This document shows positions 22,734-52,780 of a DNA stretch of 58,215 bases, one piece after another (the stretch's first letter is position 1; every line of letters begins with the position of its first letter). Position numbers and translations under genes: made by a program. The notes under the pieces are model-generated. The model searched no databases and was not told the DNA's origin. It was given only the letters and a program-made list of their open reading frames with translations. This DNA comes from Candidatus Brockarchaeota archaeon (GTDB lineage: Archaea > Thermoproteota > EX4484-205 > JAAOZP01), in NCBI GenBank assembly GCA_017601345.1, contig JAFNIT010000001.1:76835-135049 (forward strand). The letters are read 5' to 3'.

Positions 22734-23297
22734 ATGAACAGTACATCAGCTGAAATAATTGCTGAACTGGTAGGAGACCGCTTGATAATATGGGATATTA
22801 CACACTCGCAAGAACTATACAAAACGGGCTTCTTCGGCAAGCCTGTCGGCATTCCAAAACCCAAGGATTTTAATTTCAACGCCCCCCTAACGTTAGACTT
22901 GTTCGAGGGACTATACCTTTTGGAAAAAGGGGTGATAAAAATCGTTAACAGAGAGGGAAAGGAAGTTACTTCAGAACAATTACTGAGAATAGCCTCCAGA
23001 ATACACGAGGATTTTAAAAGCAAATTCATAGTTTACAGAGACCTTAGGAACAAGGGGTTTGTAGTCACGCCGGGGATAAAATTCGGATGCGATTTCGCAA
23101 TCTACGAACACGGGCCGGGGATAGATCATGCACCAGCAATACTCGAAGTCAAGAAGGCTGATGACAAGATAGATGCACCGGACTTCATTCGCGCAGGAAG
23201 GCTTGCAACATCTGTGAAAAAACTGTTTGTTTTTGCAATCGCCGACGTGAAGAATAATGATGTAAAGTACCTAGTGTCTAAATGGTGGAAAGCATAA
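22734..23297 (+). CDS. endA: tRNA-splicing endonuclease, catalytic subunit
   Basis: EndA cuts bulge-helix-bulge structures at intron ends in precursor tRNA. The 187-residue protein has the catalytic triad region: a tyrosine in FAIYEHGPG, a histidine in DHAPAIL and a lysine in SVKKLFVFA, plus YRDLRNKGFVVTPGIKFG. This is the short form that works as a homotetramer or, with a separate structural subunit, as the (alpha-beta)2 enzyme that accepts noncanonical introns. No second subunit is seen here. Two intron-bearing tRNA genes lie in the window, one with a noncanonical site. Confidence 0.95.
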   Translation: MNSTSAEIIAELVGDRLIIWDITHSQELYKTGFFGKPVGIPKPKDFNFNAPLTLDLFEGLYLLEKGVIKIVNREGKEVTSEQLLRIASRIHEDFKSKFIVYRDLRNKGFVVTPGIKFGCDFAIYEHGPGIDHAPAILEVKKADDKIDAPDFIRAGRLATSVKKLFVFAIADVKNNDVKYLVSKWWKA

Positions 23298-52023: not shown

Positions 52024-52460
52024 GTTTCTCCACGATGTTCTTTACAGTCTCCTCAATATCGTCTCAGGTGCATTTAACACCCTCTTTAAACTCAGTCTCG
52101 ATAATTTTATTCAAGTTCTCGAGGCATATGGCTACCGGAATGCCAAACGCGACTTTAAATGCTTCCACTTCCCCTCTGTGAAACAATTATTCAGATCTTT
52201 CTGCAAGCTACGTTGATAATAATCGGATACGATCGTGGTCTTGACCTCAACTATCGCTACTAAATTCCCTTTATGGTAAACATAGAAGTCCGGTTCCTCT
52301 GTTTCATATCCCTGGACAACCTCGAGCTCTTCCTTAGGTATTCCGGTCTTCCTAGATATACCTCCTTAACGTCCTTCTTGCGGTAAAATCTTGCATAATC
52401 CGAGCCTAAGGTAATCGCATTTGCGACAAGACTTTACGCACTTTAGAGGGTCGTGCGTGA
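52024..52460 (-). pseudogene. Decayed PD-(D/E)XK nuclease-like gene
   Basis: On the minus strand consecutive frames read: ANAITLGSDYARFYRKKD, then after a shift PKEELEVVQGYETEEPDF and YVYHKGNLVAIVEVKTT, then after another shift EVEAFKVAFGIPVAICLENL with an internal stop in the tail. EPDFYVY-x14-VEVKT carries the D and ExK residues of the PD-(D/E)XK nuclease fold found in many archaeal restriction-like proteins. Frameshifts and a stop show it is dead. It converges with the broken gene to its left. Confidence 0.65.
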
Positions 52461-52636
52461 CTTGTCATCTTTTCTTTAAAAGTTTTAAAAAGCATGGGAA
52501 AATACACTATGTATCGTCGGAAAGGGATTCGCCTCGTCCAGGGTCCTTATAGAGTCGCCCAGCCTTCGTGGTTTCAGGTCGTCATTCTTACCACTAAGAG
52601 GGCCTCGTCGTACCTCAGGTATTTTTTATTATAAGG
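52461..52636. other. Degraded sequence upstream of tRNA-Ser
   Basis: No gene is intact. Short minus-strand frames (LKPRRLGDSIRTLDEANPF and YLRYDEALLVV) read like protein remnants but carry no start or family motif. Confidence 0.35.
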
Positions 52637-52677
52637 AGTAAAGCTTTATTTGGTCCCCTGCGTTAACTTACTTTGAC

Positions 52678-52780
52678 GTCGGGGTAGCCAAACCTGGTTA
52701 AGGCGCGAGATATTTATACCGCGAGCCTGCTAAGCTCGTGGCCCTTGCGGGCCGTGCGGGTTCAAATCCCGCCCCCGACG
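52678..52780 (+). tRNA. tRNA-Ser (GCU) with a 16-nt intron in the anticodon stem
   Basis: Acceptor GTCGGGG pairs with CCCCGAC, discriminator G; D arm GCC...GGC; long variable arm GGCCCTTGCGGGCC; T arm GCGGGTTCAAATCCCGC. The anticodon stem CGAGC/GCTCG with loop CTGCTAA only forms when 16 nt (52710-52725) are removed between positions 30 and 31. The junctions fit a bulge-helix-bulge: helix CGCG/CGCG between bulges AG^A and AG^C, the same cut pattern as in tRNA-Tyr here. GCGAG is repeated on both sides. Mature length is 87 nt. A truncated 5' copy lies 1.5 kb upstream. Confidence 0.9.

What the first reader, a model, noticed from the sequence alone, without database searches (positions are those of the whole stretch)
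52678..52780. A 16-nt noncanonical intron in the anticodon stem of tRNA-Ser(GCU)
The gene only folds as a tRNA if 16 nt between positions 30 and 31 are removed. The junctions form helix CGCG/CGCG with bulges AG^A and AG^C, cut in the same place as the 37/38 intron of tRNA-Tyr in this window. This is close to the smallest tRNA intron size known to me, and the GCGAG repeat makes the exact cut ambiguous by sequence alone. Noncanonical introns normally need a broad-specificity endonuclease; the EndA here is a single short subunit.
Basis: seen in the sequence. Interest (0 to 1): 0.6.

Follow-up and report, generated by a model that had tools for sequence, protein, structure and literature searches.

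The report
Tiny removable insert in a tRNA gene
In an uncultured Brockarchaeota archaeon the gene for one serine tRNA carries a 16-letter insert that must be cut out of the RNA; close relatives carry the same gene with a different insert at the same spot or none at all, so it is a real but ordinary archaeal tRNA intron, useful mainly for studying how such introns come and go.

Summary
Confirmed: 52678-52780 (+) is a class II tRNA-Ser(GCU) gene interrupted by 16 nt (52710-52725) after position 30. The decisive evidence is comparative. Two congeneric genomes (G007 = JZZ.bins.4, G002 = GD2_1) have the gene without the insert. Four others have 17-23 nt at exactly this site, differing in sequence but all ending in CGCGAG. 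Of seven cut registers giving the same mature tRNA, only 30/31 makes a four-pair bulge-helix-bulge centre (CGCG/CGCG, bulges AG^A and AG^C), in every intron-bearing species. The organism is a Ca. Brockarchaeota MAG. Neither size nor position is unusual: published archaeal tRNA introns span 11-129 nt, 30/31 is a listed site, and this genome has a 14-nt T-loop intron. It is a new member of a known kind. The added value is a presence/absence and length series within one genus, with a 6-bp direct repeat at the intron ends that would allow precise loss. Splicing itself is not shown.

The parts
52678..52780 (+). tRNA-Ser(GCU) gene, intron included (class II, long variable arm, G73)
   Evidence: RF00005 42.3 bits; cloverleaf scorer; orthologues in six congeners
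52678..52709 (+). 5' exon, positions 1-30
   Evidence: identical to the intronless genes of G007 and G002
52710..52725 (+). 16-nt intron ATATTTATACCGCGAG at 30/31
   Evidence: absent in G007 and G002; replaced by 22, 18, 23 and 17 nt in G004, G005, G003 and G006
52726..52780 (+). 3' exon, positions 31-73
52729..52731 (+). anticodon GCT
   Evidence: read directly
52704..52707 (+). 5' strand of the central four-pair helix (CGCG, exon)
52720..52723 (+). 3' strand of the central helix (CGCG, intron)
   Evidence: kept in all five intron-bearing species
52708..52710 (+). 5' bulge AG^A with the predicted cut after 52709
52724..52726 (+). 3' bulge AG^C with the predicted cut after 52725
52704..52709 (+). 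direct repeat copy 1 CGCGAG (exon; positions 25-30)
52720..52725 (+). direct repeat copy 2 CGCGAG (3' end of the intron)
   Evidence: conserved in G000, G003, G004, G005, G006
52643..52652 (+). TATA-like element GCTTTATTTG about 25-35 bases upstream of the gene, kept in congeners
   Evidence: flank comparison; promoter function inferred
22734..23297 (+). EndA alpha (catalytic) subunit, 187 aa; Y124, H132, K163; loop lysines K42 and K44 equivalent to A. pernix K44 and R46

Best explanation
It is a functional single-copy tRNA-Ser(GCU) gene with a noncanonical archaeal (bulge-helix-bulge) intron of 16 nt at 30/31. In the precursor, exon CGCG (positions 25-28) pairs with intron CGCG, leaving bulges AG^A and AG^C. 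The alpha/beta EndA cuts both bulges and RtcB joins positions 30 and 31, restoring the anticodon stem CGAGC/GCUCG. Shown by sequence: gene, insert, exact exon boundaries, conserved helix and bulges, both EndA subunits, ligase. Inferred: subunit assembly, cleavage, ligation. The 30/31 intron is confined to this genus in the genomes examined, and has been gained and lost or replaced there.
For: Intronless orthologues in G007 and G002 join exactly at the predicted sites. Five species share the site and the CGCGAG end while the rest of the intron differs in length and sequence (16, 17, 18, 22, 23 nt); three of those have intron hairpins folding better than shuffles (36, 61 and 22 of 2000). 30/31 is the only register with a four-pair centre, in all five. 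The exons fold as a cloverleaf, z = -3.8. One CTGCTAAG...GTTCNAATCC match in the own genome. EndA alpha matches A. pernix alpha (1.8e-47) and keeps Tyr, His, Lys and the loop lysines. A beta-type EndA is present in this assembly and congeners. RtcB is present. 30/31 introns and splits are known in archaea, as is broad specificity of alpha2beta2 enzymes.
Against: No RNA data. The unspliced RNA can also fold with the intron's own GCGAG copy standing in for the 5' strand of the anticodon stem, by 2.5 kcal/mol better than the constrained bulge-helix-bulge fold in the window and by up to about 8 in G005. The central helix uses C25, so it competes with one D-stem pair. The window's intron-side helix is very short. 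The MAG is 77% complete, so a second gene cannot be excluded.
Confidence: 0.92

Rival explanations
1. The insert is removed at another register, for example 25/26 or 29/30, or the precursor behaves as a tRNA with a 16-nt linker between the D and anticodon arms because the intron's GCGAG replaces the 5' stem strand.
For: Seven registers give an identical mature tRNA. The decoy anticodon arm is energetically competitive in every species.
Against: Only the 30/31 register gives a four-pair centre, in all five species; other registers score 2 or less. The intron ends vary except for CGCGAG, as expected if the helix and bulges are what is selected.
Confidence: 0.06
2. The gene is a decaying pseudogene or an assembly error, and another tRNA-Ser(GCU) does the work.
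For: MAG is incomplete (77%) and mixes related populations (two EndA-beta versions).
Against: Exons are essentially identical across seven species, all stems intact, TATA-like element conserved. Independent assemblies carry inserts at the same site. No other GCU gene of this pattern found in the own genome.
Confidence: 0.02
3. The insert is an unspliced expansion kept in the mature tRNA.
For: The unspliced RNA can still form all arms with a linker.
Against: Sister species have none and others have 17-23 unrelated bases there; a kept expansion would not conserve a bulge-helix-bulge centre; a linker between positions 25 and 27 would disrupt the core of the L-shape (established tRNA structure). 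The genome has many other EndA-type introns.
Confidence: 0.02

Closest known systems
Archaeal noncanonical bulge-helix-bulge tRNA introns (Marck and Grosjean; Sugahara et al.; review PMC4090602)
   Same: Length in the 11-129 nt range, a listed position (30/31), four-pair centre with two bulges, several introns per tRNA in relatives, tRNA-intron-rich genome
   Different: Host lineage is Brockarchaeota, for which no tRNA-intron description was found in the searched literature. Centre is self-complementary, so a 6-bp direct repeat marks both ends of the intron
Split tRNA-Lys(CUU) at 30/31 of Nanoarchaeum and Staphylothermus (PMC3218864)
   Same: Same junction 30/31 with a bulge-helix-bulge
   Different: Those are trans-spliced from two genes; this is one gene with a cis intron
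Caldiarchaeum tRNA-Thr(GGU) intron heterogeneity (PMC3293823)
   Same: Presence/absence of noncanonical introns among very close relatives, flank rearrangements beside the tRNA gene
   Different: There an integrase-bearing element and a tRNA fragment were found; here no tRNA fragment was found, only a short upstream block with mosaic similarity
(alpha beta)2 splicing endonucleases with a Crenarchaea-specific loop (A. pernix 3P1Z, 3AJV; PMC12397907)
   Same: Catalytic Tyr/His/Lys, loop Lys equivalent to K44 and a basic residue at 46, separate beta-type subunit
   Different: Organism is not a classical crenarchaeon; all 80 best EndA relatives in Brock-, Bathy-, Hecatell- and Nitrososphaeria-type genomes also carry both lysines, so the loop's name is too narrow

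Membership tests
archaeal bulge-helix-bulge tRNA intron | tRNA folds normally only when the insert is removed | tested here: met
   intronless orthologues
archaeal bulge-helix-bulge tRNA intron | four-pair central helix with about 3-nt bulges holding both cut sites | tested here: met
   CGCG/CGCG, AG^A and AG^C in five species; flanking helices weak in the window, a relaxed form
archaeal bulge-helix-bulge tRNA intron | length in the known range | tested here: met
   16 nt versus 11-129 nt
archaeal bulge-helix-bulge tRNA intron | excision and ligation in vivo | not testable with these tools
   no RNA data
tRNA-Ser(GCU) | anticodon GCU, class II variable arm, G73 | tested here: met
(alpha beta)2 EndA, alpha subunit | catalytic Tyr, His, Lys | tested here: met
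   Y124, H132, K163
(alpha beta)2 EndA, alpha subunit | Crenarchaea-specific loop with Lys at 44 and a basic residue at 46 (A. pernix numbering) | tested here: met
   K42 and K44 of the window protein align to K44 and R46
(alpha beta)2 EndA, beta subunit | second EndA-fold protein encoded separately, not a full catalytic set | tested here: met
   186-aa protein on C11 (and a relative on C5), one in each examined congener, catalytic His not conserved in the alignment
(alpha beta)2 EndA | heterotetramer assembly | not testable with these tools
   inferred from gene content only

The most novel reading that the evidence does not exclude
The intron is switched on and off at the DNA level by its own 6-bp direct repeat: because the exon tetramer CGCG is self-complementary, a short insertion that duplicates CGCGAG makes a cleavable bulge-helix-bulge at once, and slippage between the two copies deletes the intron exactly, with no reverse transcription needed. 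This would explain five lengths plus two precise absences in one genus.
Probability: 0.2. Interest if true: 0.55.

Novelty: new member of a known kind. Interest (0 to 1): 0.3.

Why it matters
It corrects the impression that a lone short EndA processes noncanonical introns here: Brockarchaeota have the two-subunit, loop-bearing machinery. It also supplies a compact natural series (five intron lengths, two absences, up to three introns in one essential single-copy tRNA gene within a genus) for testing how archaeal tRNA introns are gained and lost. Standard tRNA finders such as ARAGORN miss such genes, so tRNA sets of these MAGs are under-called.

Tried and rejected
Idea that 16 nt is near a record: rejected. 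Idea that EndA is a lone subunit: rejected. Idea that the Sugahara-type mobile-element model leaves a tRNA fragment here: no second 5' fragment of tRNA-Ser(GCU) in own or congener genomes; 3-mismatch hits lie mainly in other tRNA genes. General rule that noncanonical introns sit at palindromic exon tetramers: not supported; it fits 30/31 (CGCG) and loosely the variable-arm intron (CATG/CACG with one mismatch) but not Val(CAC) T-loop, Gly(CCC) 25/26 or Arg(UCU) 30/31. Intron gain versus loss on the tree: undecided; one gain with two losses or replacements costs as much as two gains with one loss. Two paper calls failed because a term contained a slash. A first attempt at this report was malformed and rejected.

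Full report
What was checked. The window is G000:C28:76835-135049 of a 1.18-Mb, 36-contig, 77%-complete MAG. Its EndA is 81-86% identical to proteins of Candidatus Brockarchaeota MAGs and one 'Crenarchaeota' MAG, so the organism is a Brockarchaeota member; genomes G001-G007 are in the same genus.

The gene. cmscan finds three tRNAs in the window, including 52678-52780 (+) at 42.3 bits with a large insertion in the anticodon arm; ARAGORN finds only tRNA-Lys. My cloverleaf scorer, which tries every single deletion, gives a 16-nt removal with anticodon GCT and a 17-nt variable region. Stem letters: acceptor GTCGGGG/CCCCGAC, D stem GCC/GGC, anticodon stem CGAGC/GCTCG with loop CTGCTAA, T stem GCGGG/CCCGC, G73. 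This is a class II tRNA-Ser(GCU). The joined exons fold as a cloverleaf with z = -3.8 against shuffles.

The insert. Sister genomes settle it. G007 (JZZ.bins.4) and G002 (GD2_1) carry the gene with ...GGCGCGAG-CCTGCTAA... and nothing between; the window has ATATTTATACCGCGAG there; G004 (SJ3.Bin56) has 22 nt, G005 (CALIBN) 18, G003 (DRTY-6.bins.80) 23, G006 17. Every intron ends in CGCGAG, repeating exon positions 25-30. This makes seven equivalent deletions, but only the 30/31 register gives four pairs, CGCG with CGCG, and it does so in all five species, with bulges AG^A (AG^T in G006) and AG^C. The inner hairpin is rebuilt from different bases (TGTAT/ATACA, CATA/TATG, TGG/CCA, TGC/GTA, TA/TA), which argues for RNA-level selection; three of five fold better than letter shuffles (36, 61, 22 of 2000), the window's and G005's do not.

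A caution on structure. Because the intron repeats the 5' strand of the anticodon stem, the unspliced RNA can form an intact anticodon arm with the intron copy. With the acceptor and T arms held, this fold is 2.5 kcal/mol better than the bulge-helix-bulge fold in the window, about equal in G004 and up to 8 better in G005. ViennaRNA ignores modified bases, protein and growth temperature, so I take this as a competing fold, not as evidence against splicing.

The machinery. Its 187-aa product matches the A. pernix alpha subunit over its whole length (E 1.8e-47) and has Tyr124, His132 and Lys163, plus K42 and K44 aligned with A. pernix K44 and R46 of the Crenarchaea-specific loop, residues described as important for broad specificity (PMC12397907). 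A second EndA-fold protein of 186 aa lies on contig C11, with an 83% identical version on C5; each congener has one such gene and one alpha gene, apart from the fragmentary G006, where only beta was found. The beta-type proteins do not keep the catalytic His in the alignment. RtcB is present. So the two-subunit system expected for noncanonical introns is there; assembly is inferred.

How ordinary is it. Published archaeal tRNA introns are 11-129 nt, medians mostly 12-25 nt, and 30/31 is a listed position (PMC4090602); split tRNA-Lys(CUU) in Nanoarchaeum and Staphylothermus joins at 30/31 (PMC3218864). The same assembly holds many other introns: 37/38 in Tyr, Glu(UUC), Val(UAC), Asp, Pro(UGG); 25/26 in Gly(CCC), 17 nt; 59/60 in Val(CAC), 14 nt, with a perfect centre; an 11-nt insertion in Ser(GGA) with a poor centre; and 18 nt at 30/31 of Arg(UCU) on C5. 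An unrelated family in the phylum has 12 nt at 29/30 of its tRNA-Ser(GCU) (G063).

History. A tree of RpoB plus both EndA subunits gives (G000,(G001,G007)) against (G004,((G003,G006),(G002,G005))). The 30/31 intron is missing in G007 and G002 and not seen in G001, where the gene was not found. Order-level outgroups G008, G009 and G011 lack 30/31 but have D-loop insertions, and G008/G011 an anticodon-loop insertion. G003, G005 and G006 add a variable-arm intron, and G006 a T-loop intron, so one essential gene holds up to three introns. Gain versus loss is tied by parsimony. G002 is nearly identical to G005 in RpoB, yet lacks both of G005's introns, has a different variable-arm stem, and in the roughly 285 bp upstream resembles the window (97-98% in several stretches) more than G005; downstream it is 98-99% like G005. 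This favours replacement by an imported intronless allele in that case (inference).

Mechanism, shown and inferred. Shown: insert, exon boundaries, conserved helix and bulges, enzymes. Inferred: cutting at 52709/52710 and 52725/52726 by alpha/beta EndA, joining by RtcB. A further inference, which I rate at about 0.2, is that the 6-bp direct repeat permits exact intron loss by slippage, and that duplication of a self-complementary target creates a working splice motif at once. It does not generalise to other introns here, and the G002 case looks more like replacement.

Verdict. New member of a known kind, in a lineage where I found no earlier description in the searched library.

Noticed in passing
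G002:C4:10945-13743, G004:C9:4894-7695, G005:C12:87383-90181: RtcB is split by a long in-frame insert near its N-terminus (open frames of 975-985 codons versus 485 in G000, G003 and G007); looks like an intein that is polymorphic within the genus.
   Followed up: no
L002 (G000:C11) and L003 (G000:C5): Two EndA-beta versions, 83% identical, in one assembly, each at a contig end next to a conserved 356-357-aa ORF: the MAG mixes two related populations.
   Followed up: partly
window 52391-52677: About 285-bp block directly upstream of tRNA-Ser, 97-98% alike between G000 and G002 in places while sequence beyond it is unrelated; partial copies elsewhere in the genus. Possibly a recombined or mobile piece beside the tRNA.
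   Followed up: partly
G006:C162 (L160): tRNA-Ser(GCU) with three introns: 30/31 (17 nt), variable arm, and T loop.
   Followed up: partly
G000:C28:16295-16382: tRNA-Val(CAC) with a 14-nt intron at 59/60 in the T loop, four-pair centre TTCG/CGAA.
   Followed up: partly
L074-L153: All 80 best EndA-alpha relatives from Brock-, Bathy-, Hecatell- and Nitrososphaeria-type genomes keep both lysines of the so-called Crenarchaea-specific loop.
   Followed up: partly
G063 (L047): Independent 12-nt insertion at 29/30 of tRNA-Ser(GCU) in another family of the phylum.
   Followed up: partly
G000:C5:12207-12280: tRNA-Phe copy with a broken acceptor stem (CGCAAAG against CCTCGCC), otherwise like the intact one on C30; degenerate or chimeric.
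   Followed up: no
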